The translations under genes were made by a program, and so were the position numbers. Under the pieces are notes generated by a model. It made no database searches. It saw nothing but the letters and a program-made list of their open reading frames with translations, and was not told the DNA's origin. This document shows, piece by piece, positions 5,292-25,060 of a DNA stretch of 36,479 bases (its first letter is position 1; each line of letters starts with the position of its first letter). Source of the stretch: Oscillospiraceae bacterium (GTDB lineage: Bacteria > Bacillota > Clostridia > Oscillospirales > Ruminococcaceae); contig SVMW01000020.1 of the NCBI GenBank assembly GCA_015067215.1, forward strand, positions 1-36,479. The letters run 5' to 3'.

Positions 5292-5340
5292 CATAAGTAT
5301 ATGCTAAAATATACAATGTAATATAAATTTAATATTAAAA

Positions 5341-5416
5341 ACAGATGTGCAACTGGCGGATAAGTGGGATTAACCACGTGGAGCACATCGGATTGTTATG
5401 TCGACCGCCTGGGCGC
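5341..5416 (+). ncRNA. ZTP (ZMP/ZTP, pfl motif) riboswitch
   Basis: The P1 stem is GATGTGC (5344-5350) with GCACATC (5383-5389). Inside lie the conserved ACTGGCGGATAAGTGGG and ACCACGTGGAGC segments, with a GTGG/CCAC hairpin. The 3' conserved CCGCCTGGGC (5405-5414) can pair with CTGGCGG as the pseudoknot. This is the pfl-motif architecture, which senses ZMP/ZTP, a signal of 10-formyl-tetrahydrofolate shortage. The 3' element also forms the 5' arm of a terminator, so ligand binding should turn the downstream gene on. Confidence 0.93.
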
Positions 5417-5449
5417 TGTTTATTTGGCGTGCCAGGCGGTTTTCGTTTT
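5405..5449 (+). terminator. riboswitch-controlled intrinsic terminator
   Basis: CCGCCTGGGCGC (5405-5416) pairs with GCGTGCCAGGCGG (5427-5439) and is followed by TTTTCGTTTT. The 5' arm is the riboswitch pseudoknot strand. Ligand-bound RNA and terminator are therefore mutually exclusive. Confidence 0.9.
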
Positions 5450-5583: not shown

Positions 5584-6207
5584 ATGAGTAATATCAAAGT
5601 TTTCATATCTTCCATTCTTGCAGGCACATGTATTGGTTTTGGGGGCATAATTTATCTTATGAGCAGCAATAAAGTTCTTGGTGCAATGTTTTTTGCAATT
5701 GGTCTGCTTACCATCTGCTCATATGGTCTGCACCTTTATACAGGCAAGGTTTGCTATGTTTTCCAGAACAACAAAAAGTTTGTTCTGCAGATACCTGTTA
5801 TCTGGTTTGGCAATCTTATCGGCACAGGAATAACAGCACTTATAGTTCTTGCAACACGAAACGGTGCTGCTATTGCACAGGCTGCAGCTGCCCTTTGTGA
5901 AGTAAAAATGAATGACAGCTATTTAAGCCTTTTTATGCTGGGTATTTTCTGTAATATTATGATTTATATTTCGGTAGAAGGCTACAACAAAATTCAGTAC
6001 GAAATGGGCAAATACATTTCACTGTTTTTTGGTGTTATGGTGTTTATACTTTCAGGGTTTGAACACAGTATTGCCGATATGTTCTATTTCTGGGCTGCAG
6101 GCAACTGGAGTGTTGACAGTGTTATCCGTCTGATTGTTATTACACTTGGCAACGCTGTCGGCGGCATTGCTTTTGCCGAAACAAAAAGATACATATGCGA
6201 AAAATAA
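5584..6207 (+). CDS. formate/nitrite transporter (FNT) family channel
   Basis: FNT proteins are pentameric inner-membrane channels for formate, nitrite or hydrosulfide. This 207-residue copy is shorter than FocA (about 280), mainly because the cytoplasmic ends are trimmed. Family marks are SILAGTCIGFGGI in the first helix, LHLYTGKV at the first broken helix, and GFEHSIADMFYFWAAGNW with the channel His at residue 161. About six membrane segments are visible. The ATG is preceded by GAGG. It is directly downstream of the ZTP riboswitch, so it should be induced when formyl-tetrahydrofolate runs short. That points to formate, the precursor of formyl-tetrahydrofolate, as substrate. Nitrite or HS- cannot be excluded by sequence. 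Confidence 0.88.
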   Translation: MSNIKVFISSILAGTCIGFGGIIYLMSSNKVLGAMFFAIGLLTICSYGLHLYTGKVCYVFQNNKKFVLQIPVIWFGNLIGTGITALIVLATRNGAAIAQAAAALCEVKMNDSYLSLFMLGIFCNIMIYISVEGYNKIQYEMGKYISLFFGVMVFILSGFEHSIADMFYFWAAGNWSVDSVIRLIVITLGNAVGGIAFAETKRYICEK

Positions 6208-6241: not shown

Positions 6242-6280
6242 GAAACCGCCGATATAAGTTATATCGGTGGTTTCGGTTTT
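6242..6280 (+). terminator. intrinsic terminator after the FNT gene
   Basis: GAAACCGCCGATATAA (6242-6257) pairs with TTATATCGGTGGTTTC (6259-6274) with a single G-T wobble, followed by GGTTTT. It closes the riboswitch-controlled unit. Confidence 0.85.
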
Positions 6281-6449: not shown

Positions 6450-6479
6450 TTGAAAAAGGCAAAAGTTTTATTATATAAT
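6450..6479 (+). promoter_or_regulatory. promoter of the nucleoside salvage operon
   Basis: TTGAAA (6450-6455), an 18-bp spacer and a perfect TATAAT (6474-6479). The predicted start is near 6486, which is exactly where the candidate operator begins. Bases 6281-6449 upstream are AT-rich and show nothing else. Confidence 0.65.
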
Positions 6480-6485
6480 ATAAAA

Positions 6486-6502
6486 TGATAAATTGTTTAT
6501 TA
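6486..6502. promoter_or_regulatory. candidate operator at the start of the nucleoside operon
   Basis: TGATAAATTGTTTATTA matches the palindrome in front of the GntR gene (692-708) at 15 of 17 positions. It sits directly after the -10 box, where a bound protein would block initiation. AT-richness raises the chance of coincidence. Confidence 0.5.
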
Positions 6503-6531
6503 TTATATGTGATTTAAAAGGAGATGACAAT

Positions 6532-7371
6532 ATGAATGCTGTATATGAAAAACTTATGAAATGCTATGAAAGCGTGAGAGAAAGAATTGATTTTGTCCCT
6601 GAAATTGCACTTGTTCTGGGTTCAGGCCTTGGTGATTACGGCGAAACTATAGACGTTGTTGCCACTTTGGATTATCACGATATTGAAGGCTTTCCGGTTT
6701 CTACAGTGGCAGGCCACAAAGGACGTTTTATATTCGGATATGTAAATGGTGTTCCTGTGGTTTGCATGCAGGGACGTGTGCATTATTACGAAGGTTATCC
6801 TATCACAGATGTTGTATTGCCTACACGCCTTATGAAGCTGATGGGGGCAAAGGTTCTGTTCCTCACAAACGCTGCAGGTGGACTTAATTATGATTTTGCA
6901 GCGGGCGATTTTATGCTTATAACAGACCATATTATGAATTTTGTTCCATCTCCGCTTATCGGTGAAAATATTGATCAGCTGGGCACAAGATTCCCTGATA
7001 TGAGTGATGTTTACAAAAAAGACCTGCAGGAAATCATTAAAAAATCTGCATCGGATCTTGGAATAAAGCTTCAGCAGGGTGTATATATTCAGCTGACAGG
7101 CCCTAACTTTGAAACACCTGCAGAAGTCAGAATGTGCCGCACCCTTGGCGCGGATGCTGCAGGCATGTCTACAGCAGCAGAAGCAGTTGCTGCAAACCAT
7201 ATGGGAATGAAGGTTTGCGGTATCTCCTGTATTTCAAACCTTGGCTGCGGTATGACAGATACACCTCTCACACATGAGGAAGTGAGCGAAACTGCCGACC
7301 GCGTTGCAGGCCAGTTCAAACAGCTTGTAACAGAAAGCATTGTTAATATTCACAAAGCACTTAATGCATAA
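6532..7371 (+). CDS. purine nucleoside phosphorylase (trimeric PNP/MTAP family)
   Basis: The enzyme splits purine nucleosides with phosphate into base and (deoxy)ribose-1-phosphate. The 279-residue length fits the trimeric family. Motifs are VLGSGLGDYGE (phosphate loop), GRVHYYEGY, TNAAGGLN, GPNFETPAEVRMCR and GADAAGMSTAAEAVAA. Glu198 and Asn236 match the Glu and Asn that select 6-oxopurines in PNP; MTAP enzymes carry Asp instead. His248 in THEEV matches a His near the 5'-OH in PNP. That pattern favours inosine-type nucleosides, in keeping with the deaminase later in the operon. The start at 6532 is set by AAAGGAGAT; the frame runs 13 codons further up without an RBS. It is the first gene of the operon, and the next starts 9 bases on. 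It might act on 5'-methylthio- or 5'-deoxyinosine, or only on inosine/guanosine. Confidence 0.93.
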   Translation: MNAVYEKLMKCYESVRERIDFVPEIALVLGSGLGDYGETIDVVATLDYHDIEGFPVSTVAGHKGRFIFGYVNGVPVVCMQGRVHYYEGYPITDVVLPTRLMKLMGAKVLFLTNAAGGLNYDFAAGDFMLITDHIMNFVPSPLIGENIDQLGTRFPDMSDVYKKDLQEIIKKSASDLGIKLQQGVYIQLTGPNFETPAEVRMCRTLGADAAGMSTAAEAVAANHMGMKVCGISCISNLGCGMTDTPLTHEEVSETADRVAGQFKQLVTESIVNIHKALNA

Positions 7372-7380
7372 GGTGAGTGT

Positions 7381-8307
7381 ATGAAAGCTTTATATTTTGA
7401 CGGTACAAAGCCGATATATATGGAAGACTACCCAAAACCTGTTGCCACAGCAGGCCACAGCCTTATAAAAGTGCTTATGAGTGCTGTGTGCAACACTGAC
7501 CGCGAAGTTATCAGAGGCTATCGCCCTGATTTCCGCGGTGTGCTTGGTCATGAATTTGTTGGTATTGTCGAGGATTCTGACGATAAAAGCCTTATAGGAA
7601 AAAGAGTTGTGGGTGAGCTTAATGAAGGCTGCGGTGACTGCATTTACTGCAACACAAACCGTGAAAAACACTGCCTTACCCGCAAGGTTATAGGTATGGA
7701 AGGTCTGGACGGTACATTCGGTGAATATTTTGTGCTTGCAAACCATCTTATTCATCCTATTCCGGACAGCCTGCCGACAGAAAAGGCAATTTATACCGAG
7801 CCTTTGGCAGCAGCACTGGAAATTCCTGATATGCTGCACATACGCCCCAGCACATCTGTAGCGGTTATCGGTGACGGTCGTCTTGCACTTATGATTGCAC
7901 AGGTAATTGCACTGACAGGTGCGGACCTTACCATTATCGGTAAAAATGCGGACAAGCTTAAAAATTTTGAAAGTTTTGCAAAAATAAACCACAGGGACGG
8001 AGATACATACGAAATTGTTATCGATGCCTGCGGACATCCAAGCGGCATTGAAACTGCAAAAAAAGTGGTGCGTAAACGCGGAACAATAGTTATGAAAAGC
8101 ACATATGCGGGCACTGTTAACGTGGATATGAGTTATTTTGTAGTAAACGAAATTACTATTATGGGCAGCCGCTGCGGTCCGTTTGAACCTGCACTTAAAC
8201 TGTTGAATATGGGGCTTGTAAATCTTCCGCCGATTGAGCTGTGGGATTTAAAGGATTATGAAAAAGCCCTGAACTCCGGCGCATTCAAGGTTGGTTTTAA
8301 ATTTTAA
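7381..8307 (+). CDS. zinc-dependent medium-chain alcohol dehydrogenase
   Basis: This 308-residue MDR-family oxidoreductase is somewhat short for the family (about 340). Catalytic zinc ligands are visible: Cys in CNTDREVIRGY, His-Glu in GHEFVG and Glu in TEPLAAALE. A structural zinc site has four Cys in CGDCIYCNTNREKHC. The Rossmann nucleotide loop reads VAVIGDGRLAL, with Ala in place of the third Gly. It starts 9 bases after the phosphorylase with AAGGTGAG as RBS, so it belongs to the operon. Its likely job is to reduce the aldehyde released by the aldolase (acetaldehyde, methylthioacetaldehyde or glycolaldehyde) and regenerate NAD(P)+. Substrate assignment is inference from context. Sugar-alcohol or threonine-type dehydrogenase activity is the main alternative. 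Confidence 0.85.
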   Translation: MKALYFDGTKPIYMEDYPKPVATAGHSLIKVLMSAVCNTDREVIRGYRPDFRGVLGHEFVGIVEDSDDKSLIGKRVVGELNEGCGDCIYCNTNREKHCLTRKVIGMEGLDGTFGEYFVLANHLIHPIPDSLPTEKAIYTEPLAAALEIPDMLHIRPSTSVAVIGDGRLALMIAQVIALTGADLTIIGKNADKLKNFESFAKINHRDGDTYEIVIDACGHPSGIETAKKVVRKRGTIVMKSTYAGTVNVDMSYFVVNEITIMGSRCGPFEPALKLLNMGLVNLPPIELWDLKDYEKALNSGAFKVGFKF

Positions 8308-8324
8308 AATAAACAGGTGACAAA

Positions 8325-9392
8325 ATGAGCATTGAAATCAAAAAACTTGCAGATAACGTTTATCTTTCCAAAGACGGAAAAAGCGTTATAATTATTGACC
8401 AGAGACAGCTCCCGAATGAGCTTGTTGAACTTACACTTTCTACAGCACAGGAAATGTACGATGCAATCAAAAGTCTTGCGGTGCGTGGAGCACCGGCAAT
8501 CGGCATTTGTGCCGGTTATTCCATATATTGCCTTGCACAGCAGATTGAAGCTGAAACTTTTGAAGAATTTTATTCTCAGCTTAAAAAAGCAAGTGATTAT
8601 CTCAATTCTTCCCGTCCTACAGCTGTTAACCTCAGCTGGGCACTCAATCGCGTTGATGCAATGGTTAATGCAAACAAAAACAAATCAGTTGCAGAGCTTG
8701 TTGACCTTATCGGTGAAGAAGCTGTTAAAATTCAGGAAGAAGATATTGCAATGTGCAAGGCTATTTCTGAATACGGCCTTTCTCTTTTAAAGGAAGGTGA
8801 CGGTGTTCTGACACACTGCAACGCCGGCCCGTTGGCAACAAGCCGTTATGGCACAGCAATAGGTCCTATGCTTATGGCTAAGGAAAAGGGCATGAACATC
8901 AAAGTTTTTGCTGACGAAACAAGACCGCTTCTTCAGGGAGCAAGACTTACAAGTTACGAGTTGCAGAAAGCCGGTGTTGATGTAACCCTTATCTGCGATA
9001 ATATGGCAAGTATGGTTATGAAAAACGGCTGGGTTCAGGCCTGCTTTGTTGGATGTGACCGCATTGCCGCAAACGGTGACTTTGCAAACAAAATCGGAAC
9101 AAGCGGTGTTGCAATTCTTGCAAAACACTATGGTATCCCTGTTTACACACTTGGCCCGTCTTCAACAATTGACCTCAGCTGTCCAAATGGTGATGCAATT
9201 GAAATTGAACTTCGCGAACCAAGCGAAATCCGTTCCAAATTCTATGAAAAACCAATGGCTCTGGAGGAAGTCAAATGCTTCAATCCTGCATTTGACGTTA
9301 CAGACCACACTCTGCTCAGCGGCATCGTAACCGAAAAAGGTATCATCTATCCGCCGTTCAGCGAAAATCTTGCTAAACTTTTTGGTAAATAA
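8325..9392 (+). CDS. mtnA: S-methyl-5-thioribose-1-phosphate isomerase (MtnA family)
   Basis: MtnA converts methylthioribose-1-phosphate to methylthioribulose-1-phosphate. Relatives do the same with 5-deoxyribose-1-phosphate. The 355-residue protein matches the family length and shows [42 protein letters not shown] with the catalytic Cys165, [19 protein letters not shown], and [17 protein letters not shown] with the catalytic Asp245. These separate it from eIF2B subunits and fit MtnA well. It follows the dehydrogenase by 17 bases. No MtnK kinase, MtnW/X or MtnD is near, so the aerobic methionine salvage pathway is not what it serves here. The aldolase at the operon end is the probable next step. 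Confidence 0.94.
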
Positions 9393-9487
9393 TTTAGCAT
9401 AAATTTACTTTGGTATAAACATTTGTCAATAAATGTTTGTATATAAAAAATATTTTTTATCAATTTTATTTCAGGAGGACTACTACC

Positions 9488-10627
9488 ATGAAAAAGTTAT
9501 TGGCACTTGTTCTTGCAGGCGCTATGGCTTTCAGCCTTGTAGCATGCGGCCCATCCGCACCAGCTACAGAAGGTGAAGGCGAAGGCGAAGCAGCAACAGG
9601 TCTCAAAATCGCAATCGTTAGCTCCCCATCCGGCGTTGATGACGGCAGCTTTAACGAAAACAACTACAACGGCATCCTTGCTTTTATCGAAGCAAACGAA
9701 GGTGCAACAGTTACACCTGTTCGTGAAGAAACAGGCGACGTAGCAGCAGCAGTTCAGGCTGTAGCAGACATCGTTGCAGACTACGATGCAATCGTATGCT
9801 GCGGTTTCCAGTTTGCAGGCATTGCAACAATCGCACAGGAAAACCCAGAAGTAAGCTTTATCCTTGTTGACTCCAACCCTTCCGATGAAACAGGCGCAGA
9901 AGTTGCAGTAGACAACATCTATGCTATGACATTTAAAGAACAGGAATCCGGTTTCTGCGCAGGTATCGCAGCAGCTATGGAAACAAAAACAGGCAAAGTT
10001 GCAGTTGTAAACGGCATTGCATTCCCATCAAACGTTAACTACCAGTACGGTTTTGAATCAGGCGTTAACTACGCAAACAAACACCTCGGCACATCTGCAG
10101 AAGTTGTTGAACTTGCTTCCTACGCAGGTACAGACGTAACAGGTGCAAACGTTGGCGGCAACTATGTTGGCAACTTCAGCGATGAAGCAACAGGTAAAGT
10201 TGTTGGCGAAGCTCTTATCGGCGAAGGCTGTGACATCATCTTTGTAGCAGCTGGTGCTTCCGGCAACGGCGTATTCACAGCAGCTAAAGAAGCAGAAGGC
10301 GTATTCTGCATCGGTTGTGACGTTGACCAGTTTGATGACGGCGTAAACGGCGATTCCAACATTATCCTTACATCCGGTCTTAAAATTATGGACAAAAACG
10401 TAACAGAACAGCTTACAGCAATCAATGACGGCACATTCACAGGCGGTAACTACCTCCTCGGTGCTGACACAGATTCTACAGGTTATGTTTCTGCAGAAGG
10501 CAGATGCCAGCTTTCCGCTGACACAATTGCAGCAATCGACGCAGCATTTGCACTTGTAAAATCCGGCGAAATCGTTCCAGCTGCAAACTTCAACAATTTG
10601 ACATCTGACGCATTTACAGGTCTTTAA
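9488..10627 (+). CDS. BMP-family nucleoside-binding lipoprotein of an ABC transporter
   Basis: A lipoprotein signal peptide ends in SLVAC with the lipidated Cys at residue 20. The mature part (about 30-375) is a periplasmic-binding-protein fold of the Bmp/Med/PnrA type, with GVDDGSFNENNYNGI near the start and a VNGIAFPSNVNYQYGFESG segment. These proteins bind purine nucleosides outside the membrane and hand them to a YufOPQ/NupOPQ-type permease. The start at 9488 is set by TCAGGAGGAC. The gene is highly GCA/GGC rich, as expected for an abundant surface protein. It sits 95 bases after mtnA, with an AT-rich small inverted repeat between, and 98 bases before the ATPase with a stable hairpin between. 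Ligand specificity (adenosine, MTA, inosine) cannot be read from sequence. Confidence 0.92.
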   Translation: MKKLLALVLAGAMAFSLVACGPSAPATEGEGEGEAATGLKIAIVSSPSGVDDGSFNENNYNGILAFIEANEGATVTPVREETGDVAAAVQAVADIVADYDAIVCCGFQFAGIATIAQENPEVSFILVDSNPSDETGAEVAVDNIYAMTFKEQESGFCAGIAAAMETKTGKVAVVNGIAFPSNVNYQYGFESGVNYANKHLGTSAEVVELASYAGTDVTGANVGGNYVGNFSDEATGKVVGEALIGEGCDIIFVAAGASGNGVFTAAKEAEGVFCIGCDVDQFDDGVNGDSNIILTSGLKIMDKNVTEQLTAINDGTFTGGNYLLGADTDSTGYVSAEGRCQLSADTIAAIDAAFALVKSGEIVPAANFNNLTSDAFTGL

Positions 10628-10656
10628 TCTACAGAATTGCCCTAAAGGGTGAAAAT

Positions 10657-10692
10657 AAGCAATGGAAGGGGCGTTTTCCCCTTCCATCGCTT
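10657..10692 (+). terminator. intra-operon hairpin between binding protein and ATPase
   Basis: AAGCAATGGAAGGGG (10657-10671) pairs with CCCCTTCCATCGCTT (10678-10692) with one mismatch and a 6-base loop. There is no clean T run, so it probably protects the upstream mRNA or acts as a partial terminator, raising binding-protein levels over the membrane parts. Confidence 0.6.
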
Positions 10693-10725
10693 AATTATTT
10701 TATAAGAGGAGTTCGGGAGGTATAA

Positions 10726-12255
10726 ATGTCAGAGTATATCATCGAAATGAAAAATATCACCAAGCGCTTTCCCGGTATTGTTGCAAACGATAATGTAACA
10801 ATACAAATCAAAAAAGGTGAAATCTATGCATTGCTGGGCGAAAACGGCGCCGGCAAATCTACACTTATGAGCATGCTTTTCGGCATGTACGAGCCTGATG
10901 AAGGCGAAATTTATGTAAGAGGCAAAAAAGAAGTTATCACTTCTCCAAGTTATGCCACAGAATTAAACATCGGTATGGTGCACCAGCACTTTAAACTGGT
11001 TTCCAATTATACTATTGCAGAGAATATTATTATGGGTGTAGAGCCGATAAAGAAATTTATGGGCTTTATTCCGTATGTAGATATAAAAAGCTCCAACGAA
11101 AAAATTGCTGCACTCTCCAAGGAGTACGGCCTTGAGGTTGATCCTACCAAAAAAATTGAGGATATAACTGTTTCCACACAGCAGCGTGTAGAAATACTTA
11201 AAATGCTTTATCGTGAAGCAGAAATCCTTATCTTTGATGAACCTACTGCGGTTCTGACTCCGCAGGAAATCGAATTCCTTCTTGAAATTATCAGGGGCCT
11301 TAAAGCGGCAGGCAAAACAATTATTCTTATCACACATAAACTGGAAGAAATCAAAAAGGTGGCTGACCGCTGTGCTATTCTCAACCGCGGCAAGCTGATT
11401 GATGTTCTGGATGTCGCCACAACATCCACAAAGGAAATGGCAAATAAAATGGTTGGCCGTGAAGTTTCTTTTGAAAGGGAAAAAGCCGAAGCAAAATACG
11501 GTGAGGTTGTGCTGAGCGTAAAGGATCTTACAGTTAAAGATGCAAACGGTTTTGAGGTTGTAAAAAAAGCTTCATTTGATGTGCGCGGCGGTGAGATTAT
11601 GGCTATTGCAGGTGTTTCGGGCAATGGTCAGGTGGAAATTGCCGATGCAATCACAGGCATTATGCAGGCTGCAGGCGGCACTGTTATGCTCAATGGTAAG
11701 GATATCACAAACTGGAATATCCGAAAACGCAACGATGAGGGTATAGCATATATCCCTGAAGACAGACAGACATACGGTCTGGTGCTGGATTTTACCCTCA
11801 GTGATAACCTTGCACTTAAAAATTATTATCAGCAGCCTTTTGCAAACAAAGGTATTATTGACCATAAAAAATTTGATGAATTTGGCGATAAGCTTATCGA
11901 CAAATATGATATCCGCAGCGGACAGGGGATAAAGACAATGGTGCGTTCTATGTCCGGCGGTAACCAGCAGAAAGCCATTATTGCCCGTGAAGTAGAACAA
12001 AATGCAGAACTTATCATCTTTGTTCAGCCAACACGCGGTCTGGATATCGGTGCTATCGAAAATATTCACAATCAGATTATTGCAGAGCGCGACAAGGGCA
12101 AAGCGATTTTGCTTATATCCCTTGAACTTGATGAAATTATGGGCCTTGCAGACACAATTGCAGTTATTTATAACGGACAGATTCTTAAAGTGGCGGATGC
12201 AAAATCCCTTACAGTTGAAGAAGTAGGACAATTTATGATGGGGGTGACAGAGTAA
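10726..12255 (+). CDS. nucleoside ABC transporter, double ATP-binding protein (YufO/NupO type)
   Basis: The 509-residue protein has two fused ATPase domains. The first (about 5-240) has Walker A GENGAGKST, an ABC signature replaced by VSTQQRVEI, and Walker B ILIFDEPTAVLTPQE. The second (about 260-505) has the degenerate Walker A GVSGNGQVEI typical of this subfamily, the signature MSGGNQQKAIIAREVE and a Walker B of IIFVQPTRGLDIG. This pattern matches RbsA/YufO-type importers and, with the BMP lipoprotein, the nucleoside branch. The RBS is GGGAGG ahead of ATG 10726. It stops exactly one codon before the first permease, which starts at the next base. It powers uptake from the cytosolic face. Confidence 0.94.
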   Translation: MSEYIIEMKNITKRFPGIVANDNVTIQIKKGEIYALLGENGAGKSTLMSMLFGMYEPDEGEIYVRGKKEVITSPSYATELNIGMVHQHFKLVSNYTIAENIIMGVEPIKKFMGFIPYVDIKSSNEKIAALSKEYGLEVDPTKKIEDITVSTQQRVEILKMLYREAEILIFDEPTAVLTPQEIEFLLEIIRGLKAAGKTIILITHKLEEIKKVADRCAILNRGKLIDVLDVATTSTKEMANKMVGREVSFEREKAEAKYGEVVLSVKDLTVKDANGFEVVKKASFDVRGGEIMAIAGVSGNGQVEIADAITGIMQAAGGTVMLNGKDITNWNIRKRNDEGIAYIPEDRQTYGLVLDFTLSDNLALKNYYQQPFANKGIIDHKKFDEFGDKLIDKYDIRSGQGIKTMVRSMSGGNQQKAIIAREVEQNAELIIFVQPTRGLDIGAIENIHNQIIAERDKGKAILLISLELDEIMGLADTIAVIYNGQILKVADAKSLTVEEVGQFMMGVTE

Positions 12256-13419
12256 ATGAAAAAACAAAAAGTTAATCCTGTTACCAGATTTTTTGTAAAA
12301 TTACTTGGTAACGAAAAATATCAGGCTATCACCATCCCTGTTTTTGCGATTGTTTTAAGTCTTGTAGTTGGTGCATTGGTAATTGCAGCACTGGGCAAAG
12401 ACCCTGTTTCTGCCTATCTGAATCTGCTGCAGGGGTGCGGTATCTGGCCAAAAGCCAAATATGCAGGCGGCAAAAGTATGCTCACAGATTTTTTCAGCTT
12501 TATGAACTACTGGACACCGATGATTTTTGCATCCCTTGCTGTTGCTGTTGCACTTAAAGCAGGTCTGTTCAATATTGGTGTTTCCGGTCAGATGCTGGCA
12601 GCTGGCTTTGTTTCCACAGTACTTATCGGTTACAGCACACTTTCCGCACCGGTTGCAAAACCTCTTGTTGTTATCGTTGCAATCGTTGTTGGCGGTCTTG
12701 TAGGTGCATTTATCGGCTGGCTGAAGTATAAATTCAATATCAACGAGGTTGTTTCCTCAATTATGATAAACTACATCATTCAGTATGTGGTGGCATTTTT
12801 AATCAACACAAAATATGTTGACCCTGTTTCACGTCAGTCTACAAATGTTTCAGACGCTTCCCGTCTTACACTTATGAGTACACAGATAGGCGGATATAAA
12901 TATGATATACCTCTGGGTATTATCCTTGCTGTAATAGCAGCATTTGTTATCAAATTTATTTTTGACAAAACAACCTTCGGTTACGAAATAAAAACTGTTG
13001 GTTTAAACCGTAAGGCAGCACAGTATGCAGGTATCAATGTTGGCAGAAATATGGTGTTTGCAATGCTTATTTCCGGTGCATTGTCTGGTCTTGCAGGCGC
13101 AACATACTATCTTGGCTATTTCTGTTCCATGCAGCCAAAGGTGCTGGCTTCCACAGGTTTTGATGCCATTGCGGTTTCACTCCTTGGCAACAGCAACCCG
13201 TTGGGCATTCTTCTGTCATCATTCCTTATCTCCATTATGGGTAAAGGTAAAACCTATATGAGTTCTTCTGCAGGTCTTGATGCGGAAATTGCATCGGTAA
13301 TCACAGGGCTTATCCTGCTGTTCAGTGCCTGCGGTGCATTTATTCAGTACCTTGTAAAACGTTCCAAGGAAAATATTGCAGAAATTGAAAAAGCAAACAA
13401 AGCGGAGGTGGATAAATAA
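12256..13419 (+). CDS. nucleoside ABC transporter permease 1 (YufP/NupP type)
   Basis: This 387-residue integral membrane protein belongs to the BPD_transp_2 permease family. About eight to ten hydrophobic segments are visible from residue 22 on. Family marks are ALKAGLFNIGVSGQM near residue 100, NEVVSSIMINYI, and the coupling region KTVGLNRKAAQYAGIN followed by SGALSGLAGA. The N-terminal 20 residues are polar and cytoplasmic and the C-terminus is charged. It starts right after the ATPase stop, and its own stop overlaps the start of the second permease (TAATG), so the pair is translationally coupled and probably forms a heterodimer. Confidence 0.93.
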   Translation: MKKQKVNPVTRFFVKLLGNEKYQAITIPVFAIVLSLVVGALVIAALGKDPVSAYLNLLQGCGIWPKAKYAGGKSMLTDFFSFMNYWTPMIFASLAVAVALKAGLFNIGVSGQMLAAGFVSTVLIGYSTLSAPVAKPLVVIVAIVVGGLVGAFIGWLKYKFNINEVVSSIMINYIIQYVVAFLINTKYVDPVSRQSTNVSDASRLTLMSTQIGGYKYDIPLGIILAVIAAFVIKFIFDKTTFGYEIKTVGLNRKAAQYAGINVGRNMVFAMLISGALSGLAGATYYLGYFCSMQPKVLASTGFDAIAVSLLGNSNPLGILLSSFLISIMGKGKTYMSSSAGLDAEIASVITGLILLFSACGAFIQYLVKRSKENIAEIEKANKAEVDK

Positions 13420-14381
13420 TGGTAGATAAAATTATTATAGACGGTTTATCCTTTGGTCTTCCTCTTTTTGTAATGGCTATCGGCGGTATTTATTCTGAAC
13501 GCAGCGGCATTACCAACCTTGCTCTTGAAGGGTTGCAGGGGGCGGGTGCTTTTGTAGGTGCTCTTGTTGCATTTTTTATGATGCAGTCAATGGGCGCAAA
13601 CAGCCAGATTCCTTATTACGCAGCAATGGTTTTTGCAATGCTTGGCGGTATGACCTATGCAATGCTCCATGCACTTCTGTGCGTCAAATTCAAGGCTGAC
13701 CAGGTTATCAGCGGTGTTGTTATCAACATTCTTGCAATGGCACTTACCGAATTTCTGACAAAGGTTGTAAACCGCGTTGCATTCGGCAAGCCATCCAACA
13801 AGTTTGAACTTGGCGTTTCCCAGAGATGGACAGTGCCGGGTTTAAGTGAAATTCCTGTTGTAGGGGCTTTCTTTAAAGATATTTATCCGTTTGAGGTTAT
13901 TATTATTGTTGTTGCTGTTGTAGCCTGGTATGTGCTTTACCGCACAAAATTCGGTCTGCATCTGCGTGCCTGCGGCGACAATCCTCACGCTGTTGATGCA
14001 GCGGGCATAGATGTTGCCAAAATCCGCTTTATTGCAGTTATGGTTTCAGGGGCTTTGTCCGGTCTTGCAGGTATGAGCTTTGCTTACTCCATCAGTGCAA
14101 ACTATTCCAGCGGCATCTATGTTGGTTATGGTTATCTTTCAATTGCTGCCCTTATTTTCGGCAACTGGAAAATTATTCCTACACTTGCAGCCTGTATGCT
14201 GTTCGGTTTCGCCAACAGTGCGGGACATCAGCTTGTTCAGGCAGCAGGGCTTCCAAGCAGCTATTCCGACCTTATTATGATTCTCCCTTATGTCCTTACA
14301 ATGCTTCTGCTTGTATTCTTCTCCAAGCACAACGATGCACCAAAAGCATTGGGTGAAATTTACGACAAAGGCAAACGATAA
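13419..14381 (+). CDS. nucleoside ABC transporter permease 2 (YufQ/NupQ type)
   Basis: This 320-residue second permease of the BPD_transp_2 family has about eight membrane segments. Matching landmarks are GGIYSERSGITNLALEGLQ in the N-terminal part, LCVKFKADQVISGVVINILA, and the cytoplasmic coupling loop LRACGDNPHAVDAAGIDVAK followed by SGALSGLAGMS. It overlaps the previous gene by one base, and the deaminase starts 18 bases after it. Together with the lipoprotein and ATPase this makes a complete nucleoside importer encoded inside the catabolic operon, so at least part of the substrate is taken from outside the cell. Confidence 0.93.
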   Translation: MVDKIIIDGLSFGLPLFVMAIGGIYSERSGITNLALEGLQGAGAFVGALVAFFMMQSMGANSQIPYYAAMVFAMLGGMTYAMLHALLCVKFKADQVISGVVINILAMALTEFLTKVVNRVAFGKPSNKFELGVSQRWTVPGLSEIPVVGAFFKDIYPFEVIIIVVAVVAWYVLYRTKFGLHLRACGDNPHAVDAAGIDVAKIRFIAVMVSGALSGLAGMSFAYSISANYSSGIYVGYGYLSIAALIFGNWKIIPTLAACMLFGFANSAGHQLVQAAGLPSSYSDLIMILPYVLTMLLLVFFSKHNDAPKALGEIYDKGKR

Positions 14382-14399
14382 TATACAGGAGGTGTTATT

Positions 14400-15674
14400 A
14401 TGAATATCCGTATATACAACGCACGAGTTCTTACAATGGAACAGGGCAAAGATATTTTCTTTGGTGAAATTCATGTTAAAGGCAACCGCATTTCCTATGT
14501 GGGTGATGCAGCAAATGCACCAAAAGGCGAATGGGACCGCGAAATTGATGCACAGGGCAATGTAGTAATGCCCGGTTTTAAAAATGCGCATACCCATTCA
14601 GCAATGACATTCCTGCGCTCCTATGCAGATGATCTGCCTCTCCATGAGTGGCTGAACAATCAGATTTTCCCGATGGAAGCAAAGCTTACACCTGACGATA
14701 TTTATCATCTGTCCAAGCTTGCAATTATGGAATATCTTACAAGCGGTATCACAGCAAACTTTGATATGTATCTCACACCTGATACAATCGCACAGGCTTC
14801 CTTTGACTGCGGTTTCCGCACAGTTATGGTTGGCGGCTTAAACAACTTTTCCCAGTCCTTTGAAGGGTTGGAAGAGTGGCTCAACAAATACAACAACCCT
14901 GAAGATCTGGTTACATTTCAGCTTGGTTTCCATGCTGAATACACCAACAGCCGTGAAAATCTTGAAAAACTTGCTGCACTGGTACAAAAATACAAAGCAC
15001 CAATCAGCACCCACAGCAGCGAATCTGCAGGGGAAGTTGAAGGCTGTATTGAACGTCACGGCATGACACCGACAGCGTTGTTTAACAGCCTCGGTATGTT
15101 TGACTACGGCGGCAGCTGCTATCATTGTGTATATATGACAGACGAAGACCTTGACATTATGGCACAAAAAGGCATCTGTGTTGTTACAAACCCAGCATCC
15201 AACTTAAAACTTGCCAGCGGCATTGCAGATATAACCAGAATGCTGGAAAAAGGTGTTCACATTGCAATCGGCACCGATGGTCCTGCAAGCAACAACTGTC
15301 TTGATATGTTCCGCGAAATGTTCCTTGTTACAGGTCTTGCAAAGGTACGTGAAAACAACGCCGCAGCAGTAAGTGCTGACAATGTTCTTCGTATGGCAAC
15401 TGTTGAAGGTGCTTATGCAATGGGACTTAAAGATGCAGATGTACTCGCAGAAGGCAAATTTGCGGACCTTATTGTGCTTGACCTTAACCAGCCAAATATG
15501 CAGCCAATCAACAATATCGTAAAAAATATTGTATACAGCGGCAGCAAACAGAATGTCAAACTGACAATGGTAAACGGTAAAGTGCTTTATGAAGACGGAC
15601 AGTTCTTTATTGGCACACCTGCACAGGAAGTTTACGCAAAAGCAAACGAAATCATCAACCGTATGAGGGGTTAA
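14400..15674 (+). CDS. 5'-methylthioadenosine / S-adenosylhomocysteine deaminase-type amidohydrolase
   Basis: This amidohydrolase-superfamily enzyme of 424 residues has the metal ligands His64 and His66 (NAHTHSAM), a third His in GFHAEY or STHSSES (His205), and the catalytic Asp293 in IGTDGPASNN. SYADDLPLHEWL after HxH and the GPASNN extension are typical of the MtaD/TM0936 group, which deaminate MTA, SAH, adenosine or 5'-deoxyadenosine to the inosine analogue with release of ammonia. The RBS is CAGGAGGTG. The aldolase follows after two bases. In this operon its product would feed the 6-oxopurine-type phosphorylase at 6532. Chlorohydrolase or guanine-deaminase roles are less likely given the neighbours. 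Exact substrate is unproven. Confidence 0.92.
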   Translation: MNIRIYNARVLTMEQGKDIFFGEIHVKGNRISYVGDAANAPKGEWDREIDAQGNVVMPGFKNAHTHSAMTFLRSYADDLPLHEWLNNQIFPMEAKLTPDDIYHLSKLAIMEYLTSGITANFDMYLTPDTIAQASFDCGFRTVMVGGLNNFSQSFEGLEEWLNKYNNPEDLVTFQLGFHAEYTNSRENLEKLAALVQKYKAPISTHSSESAGEVEGCIERHGMTPTALFNSLGMFDYGGSCYHCVYMTDEDLDIMAQKGICVVTNPASNLKLASGIADITRMLEKGVHIAIGTDGPASNNCLDMFREMFLVTGLAKVRENNAAAVSADNVLRMATVEGAYAMGLKDADVLAEGKFADLIVLDLNQPNMQPINNIVKNIVYSGSKQNVKLTMVNGKVLYEDGQFFIGTPAQEVYAKANEIINRMRG

Positions 15675-15676
15675 GT

Positions 15677-16348
15677 ATGACAGAATTTGAAATAAAACAA
15701 CTGATGTGTGATATTGGCCGCAGAGTTTATGACCGAAAAATGGTTGCAGCAAACGACGGCAACTTTTCTGTAAAACTCAATGACAATGAATTTCTGTGCA
15801 CACCAACAGGTGTAAGCAAAGGCTTTATGACACCGGATTTTATATGCAAAGTTGATGCAAAAGGCAATGTGCTGGAAGCAAACGAAGGTTTCCGTCCATC
15901 ATCAGAAATCAAAATGCATATGCGTATTTACGAAAAAAGACCGGATGTAAAGGCAATTGTGCATGCACATCCAATTTACGCAACAGCATTTGCAATATGC
16001 GGCATGCCTCTGACAGACCCGATTATGCCGGAAGCTGTTATCAACCTTGGCGGGGTACCGCTTGCAAAATATGCAACTCCATCCACAATGGAAGTGCCGG
16101 ATTCAATAGAGGAATTTTTGCCTTATTATGACCAAGTGATGCTGGAAAATCACGGTGCACTTGCATGGGGTTCAGACCTGCTTAATGCTTATCACAAACT
16201 TGAGTCGCTTGAATTTTATGCAGAGCTGATGTATAAATCAAGAATGATAGGCAGCCCGCGCTCCCTTACTGATGAACAGGTTGAAAAACTGTACGAAATC
16301 AGAAGAAAAATGAATCTTCCGGGCAAACATATTGCTGTAGACAAATAG
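15677..16348 (+). CDS. class II aldolase (FucA/AraD family), probable (5-deoxy)ribulose-1-phosphate aldolase
   Basis: This 223-residue zinc aldolase has the full FucA active-site set at a constant offset of four: Glu77 (PSSEIKMHM), His96 and His98 (IVHAHP) and His159 (ENHGALAWG). N-terminal NDGNFSVKL and TPTGVSKG form the phosphate site. Such enzymes cleave ketose-1-phosphates to DHAP plus an aldehyde. Family members called Ald2 split methylthioribulose-1-phosphate or 5-deoxyribulose-1-phosphate in the DHAP shunt. Its place right behind the deaminase and in one operon with mtnA favours that use; fuculose- or ribulose-1-phosphate are alternatives. MtnB dehydratase belongs to the same superfamily, but no later methionine-salvage gene is present. 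Confidence 0.9.
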   Translation: MTEFEIKQLMCDIGRRVYDRKMVAANDGNFSVKLNDNEFLCTPTGVSKGFMTPDFICKVDAKGNVLEANEGFRPSSEIKMHMRIYEKRPDVKAIVHAHPIYATAFAICGMPLTDPIMPEAVINLGGVPLAKYATPSTMEVPDSIEEFLPYYDQVMLENHGALAWGSDLLNAYHKLESLEFYAELMYKSRMIGSPRSLTDEQVEKLYEIRRKMNLPGKHIAVDK

Positions 16349-16372
16349 ACAGTACATAATTATATAAACTCA

Positions 16373-16404
16373 AAAAGCAGGTATCTTAACCTGCTTTTGT
16401 TTTG
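16373..16404 (+). terminator. terminator of the nucleoside operon
   Basis: AAAAGCAGGT (16373-16382) and ACCTGCTTTT (16389-16398) form a perfect stem with a 6-base loop, followed by GTTTTG. Confidence 0.88.
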
Positions 16405-17876: not shown

Positions 17877-18449
17877 TTAACCCAATGGGATAATTGTTTT
17901 GCCGTATTCTTCGTTGATAATCTGGCCTGCTGCGCTATAGATAGCGGAAAGACCACAGAAGATGCCTTCAAAGCCTGCGATTTTTGTGATTGCGTGGTTG
18001 TGTGTGAAATCACCGATAGCAAGCAGGAAAAACAGAATAGCAAGGGAACCAAAAACAACCTGTGTTGCTTTGTTGTGTTTGAGTGTACCGATAAACATAA
18101 ATGTTGTAAAGATACCCCACAAAAGCAGATAGAATGCAAGATATGTAGCATCAGCAGGTGCAATTGTTGCCACATCAGCAAATGGGTTAACCCAGATGAT
18201 AACAAGTGACCACCAGAACAGACCGTATGCTGTAAATGCTGTGCCTGCAAATGTGTTGCCGTGTTTAAGTTCAAAAATACCTGCAATAACCTGTGCAAGA
18301 CCGCCCATAGCAATACCCATTGCAACTACAATGATGCTGTTAGGGAAAAAACCTGCATTGTGAAGGTTAAGCAAAACTGTTGTCATACCAAAGCCCAGAA
18401 GACCCAAAGGACCAGGGTTGGAAGTTTTATGTTTGATTTCTGTAGACAT
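17877..18449 (-). CDS. acetate/succinate transporter, SatP (GPR1/FUN34/YaaH) family
   Basis: This 190-residue membrane protein has six hydrophobic segments and the family signature NPGPLGLLGFGMTT near the N-terminus. FELKHGNTFAGTAFTAYGLFW sits in the middle (the FxxGxTFxxTxFxSYG-like region) and a G-rich last helix closes the protein. SatP proteins move acetate or succinate with protons, in either direction depending on the gradient. The ATG at 18449 is chosen because CGGAGGATATAA precedes it; the frame extends 37 codons upstream across the promoter, which is not coding. It forms a single-gene unit with its own promoter and a shared terminator. In a fermenter, acetate export or re-uptake is the natural role. 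Confidence 0.9.
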   Translation of the reverse strand: MSTEIKHKTSNPGPLGLLGFGMTTVLLNLHNAGFFPNSIIVVAMGIAMGGLAQVIAGIFELKHGNTFAGTAFTAYGLFWWSLVIIWVNPFADVATIAPADATYLAFYLLLWGIFTTFMFIGTLKHNKATQVVFGSLAILFFLLAIGDFTHNHAITKIAGFEGIFCGLSAIYSAAGQIINEEYGKTIIPLG

Positions 18450-18525
18450 TTTATATCCTCCGTATAAGTTGTGTTTATTTAAAAAACACTGTAAATATTT
18501 ACCTTTTAAGGTGTATCGAGTACCT

Positions 18526-18554
18526 ATTATACGGGTATGTATACATAAAAGCAA
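18526..18554 (-). promoter_or_regulatory. promoter of the SatP-type gene
   Basis: Read on the minus strand: TTGCTT (18554-18549), a 17-bp spacer and a perfect TATAAT (18531-18526). The leader is about 70 bases long. Confidence 0.65.
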
Positions 18555-18582
18555 GCACAATTTTATTGTTTTGTAAATAAAT

Positions 18583-19266
18583 TTATTTATCCAAATCTTC
18601 TATGATTTTATCTGCAATATCAAGGCAGAGTGCTGCAGCTTCGTTGACAGTGTTTCTGAACTCTTCAGCGCCGCCTTCAATGCTGTCGCTTACGCTTTTG
18701 ATAAGCAGGCAAGGCACATTGTTTCGGTTGCAGATAAGTACAATGCCTGCTGCTTCCATTTCGCATATATGTGCACCAAACTGCTTGTTAAGGTTAATTT
18801 TAAGCTGAGGGTCAGCAATAAATTTATCAGCAGAAGCACAGATAACAGGAACAAGCTCAGGGTTAATTGCCAGTGCTTTTTCAAGAAGTTCTTTGTTTGC
18901 AGGGATATATGGATCAGGATATTCCGCATATCTGCCTACTTCCCAGTTGTCAACGGCACTTGTGTCAAAATCGTAATGAACAACTTTTTCCACAACACAG
19001 GTTTTGGTTTTCGCCATTTCAGGTGTAAGGCCGCCAACAACACCAAAGTTGATAATCATATCGGTTTTATATTCGCTTATAAGAAACTGTGTGCAGCCTG
19101 CTGCAGCAATTTCACCTGCACCGCATTTTGCAATGATAAGGTTGTACTTATCTGTTTTATATTCCAATACGCGGTATCCCGCAATGTTTTTTTCTGTAAG
19201 CTGAGAGCCGTATCTGTCAAGAACAGCCTTGATTTCAACAGCAACAATCATACCTATTGTTTTCAT
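18583..19266 (-). CDS. 5'-methylthioadenosine/S-adenosylhomocysteine nucleosidase-like protein
   Basis: This 227-residue member of the PNP/UDP phosphorylase superfamily fits the MtnN nucleosidase branch. MIVAVEIKAVL at the N-terminus carries the Glu expected near position 12. INFGVVGGL follows the central strand. EMEAAGIVLICNRNNVPCLL matches the ribose- and base-binding region, and SVSDS holds the catalytic Asp. MtnN hydrolyses MTA, SAH and 5'-deoxyadenosine to adenine plus the thio- or deoxyribose. It would compete with the deaminase route encoded at 6532-16348, because its free sugar product needs a kinase not found here. It has its own promoter and is read on the minus strand. A related nucleosidase with another ligand is possible. 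Confidence 0.85.
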   Translation of the reverse strand: MKTIGMIVAVEIKAVLDRYGSQLTEKNIAGYRVLEYKTDKYNLIIAKCGAGEIAAAGCTQFLISEYKTDMIINFGVVGGLTPEMAKTKTCVVEKVVHYDFDTSAVDNWEVGRYAEYPDPYIPANKELLEKALAINPELVPVICASADKFIADPQLKINLNKQFGAHICEMEAAGIVLICNRNNVPCLLIKSVSDSIEGGAEEFRNTVNEAAALCLDIADKIIEDLDK

Positions 19267-20456: not shown

Positions 20457-20533
<77 letters not shown>

Positions 20534-20540
20534 TTGATAT

Positions 20541-20618
20541 GGTGGATGTAGCTTAGTTGGTTAAAGCGCCAGTTTGTGGCACTGGAGACCGTGGGTTCGA
20601 ATCCCATCTTCCACCCCA
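20541..20618 (+). tRNA. tRNA-His (anticodon GTG)
   Basis: The anticodon loop holds GTG between matching GCCAG/CTGG arms. The extra 5' G (-1) faces C73, the histidine identity pair, and CCA is encoded. The T arm is GTGGGTTCGAATCCCAT. Confidence 0.97.
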
Positions 20619-20626
20619 CCTAAAAG

Positions 20627-20651
20627 GCACCTGTTTAACAGGTGCTTTTTT
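20627..20651 (+). terminator. terminator-like hairpin between tRNA-His and tRNA-Gln
   Basis: GCACCTGTT (20627-20635) and AACAGGTGC (20637-20645) followed by six T. Either tRNA-Gln has separate expression or read-through is partial. Confidence 0.75.
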
Positions 20652-20658
20652 AATATTC

Positions 20659-20734
20659 TGGGCTATCGCCAAGCGGTAAGGCAACGGACTTTGACTCCGT
20701 CATCCCGCTGGTTCGAATCCAGCTAGCCCAACCA
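20659..20734 (+). tRNA. tRNA-Gln (anticodon TTG)
   Basis: The acceptor TGGGCTA pairs with TAGCCCA, and CCA is encoded. The anticodon loop CTTTGAC lies between ACGGA and TCCGT. The T arm has GGTTCGAATCC. Confidence 0.97.
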
Positions 20735-24722: not shown

Positions 24723-24731
24723 TTATTAAAA

Positions 24732-25060
24732 ATGAGCAAACCGTAAGCCGGGTTCTGTATTAGACGACAATCTATCTCGACTATAAGTTGCCTTATAGCT
24801 CTAGCCACCTCCTGAAAGCTGCAGGGCGCATATGCTTTACTGTCGGGTGTTGCTTCGGGTAGGGTTTACACAGCCATGATGTCTCCACCATGCTGGTGAG
24901 CTCTTACCTCGCCTTTTCATCCTTACCTGTAAACAGGCGGTAATTTTCTGTTGCACTTTCCCTAAGGTCGCCCTCGGCTGACGTTATCAGCTACCCTTGC
25001 CCTGTGAAGCCCGGACTTTCCTCACGCTCAAAAAAGCGCGCTGCCGTCTGGTTTACTCAT
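24732..25060 (-). ncRNA. rnpB: RNase P RNA, bacterial class A
   Basis: Read on the minus strand, the RNA opens with ATGAGTAAACCAGACGGC and includes the universal GAGGAAAGTCCGGGC. It also has CACAGGGCAAGGGTAGCTGA and GAGGGCGACC, and it ends with ACAGAACCCGGCTTACGG then TTTGCTCAT, which closes with the 5' end. It is the ribozyme that trims tRNA 5' leaders. It lies 14 bases beyond the end of the TM2 gene on the same strand and ends at the bidirectional terminator. Confidence 0.95.

What the first reader, a model, noticed from the sequence alone, without database searches (positions are those of the whole stretch)
6450..16404. One operon encodes import and complete breakdown of a 5'-modified nucleoside to DHAP plus an aldehyde/alcohol
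Seen: phosphorylase, zinc alcohol dehydrogenase, MtnA isomerase, BMP lipoprotein, ABC ATPase, two permeases, MTA/SAH-type deaminase and class II aldolase, all on one strand with short gaps and one end terminator. Known: the DHAP shunt (MtnP or MtnN+MtnK, then MtnA, then Ald2) turns MTA or 5'-deoxyadenosine into DHAP plus methylthioacetaldehyde or acetaldehyde. Inferred: here the order is import, deamination, phosphorolysis, isomerisation, cleavage, reduction. It would recover purine base, ammonia and a triose, and dispose of a radical-SAM by-product without oxygen. I do not know of this transporter-linked, deaminase-first version being described.
Basis: partly seen in the sequence, partly recalled or inferred. 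Interest (0 to 1): 0.8.

Follow-up and report, generated by a model that had tools for sequence, protein, structure and literature searches.

The report
Purine nucleoside import and breakdown operon
A bacterial genome akin to Oscillospiraceae carries a nine-gene operon that looks able to import a purine nucleoside, strip off the base, and split the leftover sugar phosphate into a glycolysis intermediate plus a small aldehyde; whether it mainly eats ordinary or 5'-deoxy nucleosides is open, and if ordinary it would be a little-known way to use ribose.

Summary
The nine genes are real, on one strand, with short gaps, a promoter-like site and a terminator-like hairpin: PNP-I purine nucleoside phosphorylase, zinc alcohol dehydrogenase, MtnA, BMP lipoprotein, ABC ATPase, two permeases, MTA/SAH-type deaminase, FucA-like aldolase. 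The nine-gene order was seen only within the genus; its core (PNP-MtnA-deaminase, with or without aldolase) recurs in other families of the order. "Nucleoside to base + DHAP + aldehyde" is a well-supported prediction. "5'-modified" is not: the phosphorylase is an inosine/guanosine type, keeps the histidine that holds the 5'-OH, and is the only purine nucleoside phosphorylase found in the 83%-complete assembly; an MtnN-like gene lies nearby. For 5'-modified substrates: PNPs near MtnA lack that histidine more often (7/13 vs 4/84), not significant on the tree. Nine of 22 genomes tested lack DeoB, but own has it, and the lack does not track phosphorylase linkage. Transporter-linked DHAP shunts and deaminase-first routes are in print separately. 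New variant of a known kind; substrate unproven.

The parts
6242..6274 (+). terminator-like hairpin between the upstream formate/nitrite-transporter gene and the operon
   Evidence: 15 pairs, T-rich tail; consensus match only
6450..6479 (+). sigma-70-like promoter TTGAAA-18-TATAAT
   Evidence: 11 of 12 matches; consensus match only
6532..7371 (+). purine nucleoside phosphorylase, PNP-I type (279 aa, ATG start)
   Evidence: TIGR01700 and PRK08202 above cut-off; Glu194, Asn236, His248 at the positions of human PNP Glu201, Asn243, His257 (human sequence and residue roles recalled)
7381..8307 (+). zinc-dependent medium-chain alcohol dehydrogenase (308 aa); proposed aldehyde reductase
   Evidence: ADH_N and ADH_zinc_N; no NCBIfam model above cut-off; Cys37, His57, Glu58, Glu140 and Cys84/87/90/98 (ligand roles recalled)
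8325..9392 (+). MtnA-type aldose-1-phosphate isomerase (355 aa)
   Evidence: TIGR00512 395.2 bits, cut-off 279; Cys165, Asp245, Lys256 aligned to solved enzymes (roles recalled)
9488..10627 (+). BMP/PnrA-type substrate-binding lipoprotein (379 aa, lipobox-like LVAC)
   Evidence: Pfam Bmp; nearest solved chains are BMP-family lipoproteins including tmpC
10726..12255 (+). ABC transporter ATPase, two ATPase domains (509 aa)
12256..13419 (+). ABC permease 1 (387 aa)
   Evidence: BPD_transp_2
13419..14381 (+). ABC permease 2 (320 aa)
   Evidence: BPD_transp_2
14400..15674 (+). amidohydrolase, MTA/SAH/5'-deoxyadenosine deaminase-like (424 aa)
   Evidence: nearest solved chain is named an MTA/SAH deaminase (4f0r); no listed NCBIfam model above its cut-off (5'-deoxyadenosine deaminase 309.6 bits, cut-off 522)
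15677..16348 (+). class II (FucA-like) aldolase (223 aa)
   Evidence: Glu77, His96, His98, His159 at catalytic/metal positions (roles recalled); all listed NCBIfam models below cut-off
16373..16398 (+). terminator-like hairpin after the operon
18583..19266 (-). MtnN-like nucleosidase, outside the operon but bearing on its substrate
   Evidence: best PRK05584, 109.8 bits, cut-off 169; TIGR01704 71.8, cut-off 73.8

Best explanation
An operon for uptake and full breakdown of purine nucleosides. The BMP-ABC importer brings in the nucleoside; the deaminase turns adenosine-type nucleosides into inosine types; PNP-I releases hypoxanthine (or guanine) and a ribose-1-phosphate; MtnA isomerises this 1-phosphate to the 2-ketose 1-phosphate; the FucA-like aldolase cuts it to DHAP and a two-carbon aldehyde; the zinc alcohol dehydrogenase reduces the aldehyde. 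I commit to ordinary ribonucleosides as the main flux (ribose-1-phosphate to ribulose-1-phosphate to DHAP plus glycolaldehyde to ethylene glycol), with 5'-deoxy or 5'-methylthio nucleosides as possible side substrates. Shown by sequence: the genes, their families, conserved residues, co-direction, recurrence of the core set. Inferred: every reaction, and above all that this MtnA accepts ribose-1-phosphate.
For: PNP above the inosine/guanosine cut-offs, far below MTA/MTI phosphorylase models; 5'-OH histidine kept; it is the only PNP among 3 PNP_UDP_1 proteins in the assembly, the others being a uridine-phosphorylase-like protein (named from its sequence by recall) and the MtnN-like one; no PF00962 adenosine deaminase in 14 of 16 genomes tested, own included. 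Elsewhere MtnA sits with a DeoD-type PNP in 3 loci, twice with BMP (L081, L083, L228). DeoB has no match in 9 of 22 genomes tested (21 with MtnA seen, G002 with only part of the operon seen). G135 (94% complete) has PNP-MtnA-deaminase-aldolase, one PNP_UDP_1 protein and no match for DeoB, transketolase_N, MtnN or MtnK. A review says the methionine-salvage enzymes were promiscuous enough to turn ribose into homoserine, citing work on B. subtilis (PMC6302742, passage; the cited paper is not held); that suggests some MtnA action on ribose-1-phosphate. Haloarchaea make DHAP and ethylene glycol from guanosine through ribulose-1-phosphate (PMC9700705, abstract and passages).
Against: The window genome has DeoB and a transketolase_N match, as do 13 and 21 of the 22 genomes tested, so ribose-1-phosphate has a normal outlet. 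DeoB absence does not track phosphorylase linkage: it is missing in 5 of 14 genomes with PNP or DeoD near MtnA and in 4 of the other 8 (my count); there is no baseline in genomes without MtnA. I saw no paper showing an MtnA acting on ribose-1-phosphate in a cell. Studied relatives of MtnA and the aldolase act on 5-deoxy/5-methylthio compounds (PMC6079011, passages). PNPs near MtnA lack the 5'-OH histidine in 7 of 13 against 4 of 84 others, which points to 5'-deoxy substrates for some of these sets, though not significant on the tree.
Confidence: 0.42

Rival explanations
1. One reading: the main substrates are 5'-modified nucleosides (5'-deoxyadenosine, MTA). The same enzymes run in the same order and give DHAP plus acetaldehyde or methylthioacetaldehyde, reduced to ethanol or methylthioethanol: a deaminase-first, PNP-dependent DHAP shunt.
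For: MtnA and a FucA-like aldolase are the defining pair of the 5-deoxyribose/DHAP shunt (PMC6079011, passages). An aldolase 49-51% identical to the window's lies beside MtnA in 7 class-level loci (L229, L230, L231, L233, L234, L236, L238), two of these genomes (G629 = L229, G411 = L230) with a kinase over the MtnK cut-off next to MtnA. The deaminase's nearest solved relative is an MTA/SAH deaminase. Loss of the 5'-OH histidine in 7 of 13 MtnA-linked PNPs: Val 1, Gly 2, Ser 1, Asp 1, Glu 2.
Against: The window's own PNP keeps the histidine and scores as PNP-I. An MtnN-like gene is present. It would leave the assembly without a seen PNP for ordinary purine nucleosides (83% complete). Tree-aware test not significant.
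Confidence: 0.37
2. Two functions in one transcript: importer, deaminase and PNP do ordinary purine salvage with ribose-1-phosphate going through DeoB, while MtnA, aldolase and ADH deal with a separate small flux of 5-deoxy sugars or another ketose phosphate.
For: PNP-deaminase neighbours without MtnA are common in the class (12 of 97 PNPs are deaminase-linked only); DeoB present in own genome; 4 of 6 loci read for aldolase homologues of 67-75% identity look like glycyl-radical microcompartment loci without MtnA (one, L027, checked by Pfam).
Against: A PNP (12) or DeoD (3) lies within 8 kb of MtnA in 15 of 92 distinct MtnA neighbourhoods outside the window, where random placement in a 2-Mb genome would give about one (my estimate). 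MtnK has no match in own assembly and no MTA phosphorylase was seen among its PNP_UDP_1 proteins, so PNP is the only seen source of an MtnA substrate.
Confidence: 0.12
3. The aldolase is a decarboxylase of the 3-oxo-tetronate-4-phosphate type or an epimerase, and no DHAP is made.
For: The top NCBIfam hit is OxoTetrPhDc (141 bits).
Against: Below its cut-off of 250; no tetronate genes in the operon; aldolases of the same family sit beside MtnA, with MtnK in L229.
Confidence: 0.05

Closest known systems
5-deoxyribose salvage / DHAP shunt (drdK-drdI-drdA; mtnK-mtnA-ald2)
   Same: MtnA isomerase and a FucA-like class II aldolase giving DHAP and an aldehyde; transporter genes in some clusters
   Different: entry by PNP-I plus a deaminase instead of MtnN+MtnK or MtnP; BMP-type importer; built-in alcohol dehydrogenase
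Methanocaldococcus jannaschii 5'-deoxyadenosine route (deaminase, promiscuous MTI phosphorylase, MtnA)
   Same: deamination, then phosphorolysis and MtnA isomerisation
   Different: archaeon; no such operon in what I read; later steps proposed differently. Known to me from passages of PMC6302742 and PMC6079011 only
Non-carboxylating pentose bisphosphate pathway of halophilic archaea
   Same: guanosine phosphorolysis to DHAP plus glycolaldehyde/ethylene glycol via ribulose-1-phosphate and a FucA-annotated aldolase
   Different: there ribose-1-phosphate is first phosphorylated, isomerised as the bisphosphate and dephosphorylated; here a direct MtnA step would replace three enzymes
Bacterial BMP-type nucleoside ABC importers (PnrA, NupABC/BmpA; names recalled)
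   Same: BMP lipoprotein, two-domain ATPase, two permeases
   Different: in one operon with the catabolic enzymes; ligand untested

Membership tests
DHAP shunt / 5-deoxyribose salvage | MtnA-type 1-phosphate isomerase | tested here: met
   TIGR00512 395.2 bits, cut-off 279; residues
DHAP shunt / 5-deoxyribose salvage | FucA-like class II aldolase in the cluster | tested here: met
   Pfam Aldolase_II and metal/catalytic positions; same operon, not adjacent to MtnA
DHAP shunt / 5-deoxyribose salvage | entry by MtnP, or MtnN plus MtnK | tested here: not met
   phosphorylase below MTAP cut-off; no MtnK match in the 83%-complete assembly; MtnN-like gene outside the operon
DHAP shunt / 5-deoxyribose salvage | acts on 5-deoxy or 5-methylthio sugars | not testable with these tools
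   needs enzyme assays
Non-carboxylating pentose bisphosphate pathway | R15P isomerase | tested here: not met
   TIGR00511 190.4 bits, cut-off 314.1, for the operon's isomerase; rest of the genome not searched
Non-carboxylating pentose bisphosphate pathway | R1P kinase and RuBP phosphatase | not tested
   none in the operon; rest of the genome not searched for them
Non-carboxylating pentose bisphosphate pathway | ribulose-1-phosphate aldolase | tested here: inconclusive
   NF053831 99.8 bits, cut-off 300: related, below that model's cut-off
PNP-I (inosine/guanosine phosphorylase) | curated model cut-offs and 6-oxopurine/5'-OH residues | tested here: met
BMP nucleoside ABC importer | BMP lipoprotein, ATPase and two permeases together | tested here: met
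BMP nucleoside ABC importer | binds nucleosides | not testable with these tools
   needs ligand-binding assay
Methionine salvage pathway | MtnB dehydratase and later steps | tested here: not met
   aldolase 87 bits, MtnB cut-off 137.05; no later genes in the operon; rest of the genome not searched

The most novel reading that the evidence does not exclude
Some Clostridia dispose of nucleoside ribose without phosphopentomutase: MtnA has become a ribose-1-phosphate isomerase, and a FucA-like aldolase plus a reductase turn ribulose-1-phosphate into DHAP and ethylene glycol. In genomes without DeoB (9 of 22 tested) this would be a main outlet, and the window operon couples it to its own nucleoside importer.
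Probability: 0.35. Interest if true: 0.75.

Novelty: new variant of a known kind. Interest (0 to 1): 0.5.

Why it matters
[quoted passage not shown] An MtnA-aldolase route from imported purine nucleosides would be a shorter, oxygen-free alternative in Clostridia, with a two-carbon aldehyde or alcohol as product. If instead 5'-deoxy nucleosides are the substrate, it is a further entry into the DHAP shunt beside the two named in print (PMC10986504, passage). Assays on four enzymes can separate the two.

Tried and rejected
MtnA residue after NKIGT as a marker: Tyr in the four solved chains whose alignments were printed, Ser in the window, so I first took Ser as a sign of ribose-1-phosphate use. 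Rejected: L229, with MtnK-MtnA-aldolase, also has Ser.

MtnN presence or absence as a clue: mixed. Of genomes with PNP-MtnA-deaminase, G252, G203, G180 and G021 have MtnN over the cut-off, G135 has no match, and G212 only a weak one.

His257 test: strong in a plain count (Fisher p 3.5e-5), not significant on the tree, so kept as a hint. The 13 MtnA-linked rows include the window and its near copy L025 (both His) and two near-identical rows L215 and L219 (both Glu). Many of the 84 other PNPs come with only about 1.5 kb of flank, so some linkage may be missed. Of the four non-His PNPs not linked to MtnA, two (L130 = G042, L291 = G521) lie in genomes that have MtnA elsewhere. Dropped before the count: matches under 200 aligned positions or under 40% identity (the MTAP-like L266 among them) and identical sequences.

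A phosphopentomutase of the phosphohexomutase kind is known (PMC11641776, abstract start), so no DeoB does not prove no mutase.

Upstream of the operon an imperfect palindrome was seen by eye and not tested. No structure prediction was run.
Full report
What is there. The window is contig 26 of a 1.80-Mb, 60-contig assembly estimated 83% complete. Nine + strand genes at 6532-16348 form one apparent transcription unit, after a terminator-like hairpin that follows a formate/nitrite-transporter gene and before one that follows the aldolase, with a promoter-like site at 6450-6479. Families: PNP-I purine nucleoside phosphorylase; zinc alcohol dehydrogenase; MtnA; BMP lipoprotein; two-domain ABC ATPase; two BPD_transp_2 permeases; amidohydrolase of the MTA/SAH deaminase group; class II aldolase. 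Catalytic or metal positions are kept in MtnA, aldolase, deaminase, ADH and PNP (residue roles recalled).

How far it is conserved. The same nine genes in the same order occur in a same-genus genome (L025, taken as the same contig as L117; 79-95% identity). A second same-genus genome, G002, has, at a contig start, the deaminase (91%) and an aldolase that breaks off near residue 79. MtnA was found in 54 of 245 genomes of the order at E 1e-60 and 97 of 391 of the class at E 1e-80, own genome and G030 being in both. I read only part of these neighbourhoods: 93 rows, 92 distinct, the window itself not counted; many are cut by contig ends. Within 8 kb and on either strand, 52 of the 93 rows had none of PNP, DeoD, deaminase, aldolase or BMP, 30 had an aldolase, 16 a deaminase, 6 BMP, 3 DeoD and 14 a PNP match (12 distinct trimeric PNPs, the L025/L117 duplicate, and one MTAP-like 27% match, L266). 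Arrangements include PNP-MtnA-deaminase (L080, L082, L094, L099, L227), PNP-MtnA-deaminase-aldolase (L090), deaminase-PNP-MtnA with aldolase (L100, L210) or without (L215, L219), ADH-MtnA-BMP (L084, L087, L088), MtnA-BMP-DeoD (L228), aldolase-MtnA-DeoD (L081), BMP and ABC genes with MtnA-DeoD (L083), and ABC genes with PNP-MtnA and a fuculose-phosphate-type aldolase (L247). The nine-gene version is a local assembly of a recurrent module: the module goes well beyond close relatives, the nine-gene order was seen only within the genus.

Which nucleoside. G135, 94% complete, has PNP-MtnA-deaminase-aldolase, a single PNP_UDP_1 protein and no match for DeoB, transketolase_N, MtnN or MtnK. Against this: own genome has DeoB and a transketolase_N match, as do 13 and 21 of the 22; and DeoB is missing in 5 of 14 genomes with PNP or DeoD near MtnA and in 4 of the other 8, so the lack does not follow the linkage. 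For 5'-modified nucleosides: what is published on relatives of MtnA and the aldolase (PMC6079011, passages), the deaminase's nearest solved relative, and lack of the 5'-OH histidine in 7 of 13 MtnA-linked PNPs against 4 of 84 others. On a quick tree of 96 PNPs the loss needs at least 7 changes; there are 4 independent pairs on supported branches (7 on all), in which the traits go the same way in 1.5, the other way in 0.1 and do not differ in 2.5 on average, median p 1. The window's PNP keeps the histidine; its near relative L080 (= L128) has Asp.

The aldolase. Of 25 loci with close relatives, L025 is 89% identical, 23 are 67-76% and L049 32%. The 23 show no other window gene apart from distant ATPase or ADH matches in three (L028, L033, L045; several loci are short). 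In the 6 loci whose open reading frames I read four look like glycyl-radical microcompartment loci; one of them, L027, was checked by Pfam: glycyl radical enzyme, BMC shell proteins, aldehyde dehydrogenase. L033 looks like a sugar-kinase operon by eye; L029 shows neither. So the aldolase belongs to a group that plausibly makes DHAP and an aldehyde from several 2-ketose 1-phosphates, and it does not decide between the readings. FucA cleaves D-ribulose-1-phosphate in E. coli growing on D-arabinose (recalled).

What is in print. Seen as passages: clusters of MTR kinase or MTA phosphorylase, MtnA and FucA-like aldolase in six phyla, four of the clusters drawn with sugar-transporter genes (PMC6079011); E. 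coli mtnK-mtnA-ald2 with a putative transporter as one operon (PMC12632272); MtnP named as the other known entry (PMC10986504); M. jannaschii deaminase, promiscuous MTI phosphorylase and MtnA, and ribose conversion by methionine-salvage enzymes (PMC6302742); guanosine to DHAP and ethylene glycol in haloarchaea (PMC9700705). No title or abstract listed in searches, nor the passages I opened, describes a deaminase + PNP + MtnA + aldolase operon or a bacterial MtnA ribose-1-phosphate route; the library is open-licence only, most listed papers were not opened, and the papers cited as Nakano 2013 and Miller 2014 are not held.

Verdict. New variant of a known kind, interest 0.5.

Noticed in passing
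window 5339-5421 (+): ZMP/ZTP riboswitch (62.6 bits, gathering 39) upstream of a formate/nitrite-transporter gene (5584-6207).
   Followed up: no
window 18583-19266 (-): MtnN-like nucleosidase below the curated cut-offs, beside a GPR1/FUN34/YaaH-family gene (17877-18560); an MtnN match also follows the broken-off operon end in G002 (C12:1328-1984).
   Followed up: partly
L116 (G002:C12) about 880-1150: Aldolase gene of the operon breaks off after about 79 residues inside a contig, while the deaminase before it is 91% identical.
   Followed up: partly
L236 and L238: MtnA-aldolase pair preceded by a EutN/CcmL shell-vertex-like gene (Pfam for L236; by eye for L238), which may mean a microcompartment version of the shunt.
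   Followed up: no
L237, L243, L252: MtnA beside a PfkB-type sugar/pseudouridine-kinase-like gene (L237 scanned, below cut-offs) and an ORF that looks PsuG-like by eye (L237: no NCBIfam match at 1e-10).
   Followed up: partly
L247 (G416): Parallel locus: ABC permease related to the window's, PNP with Val at the 5'-OH histidine position, MtnA with Tyr after NKIGT, and an aldolase over the PRK06833 L-fuculose-phosphate aldolase cut-off. May be the 5'-modified version of the same idea.
   Followed up: partly
L177, L268, L273, L276, L278, L293, L299, L300, L304: Tandem pairs of PNP-I genes whose two copies fall into two separate clades of the PNP tree.
   Followed up: no
window 24729-25059 (-), 20457-20734 (+): RNase P RNA and three tRNA genes (Arg, His, Gln); ordinary.
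   Followed up: no
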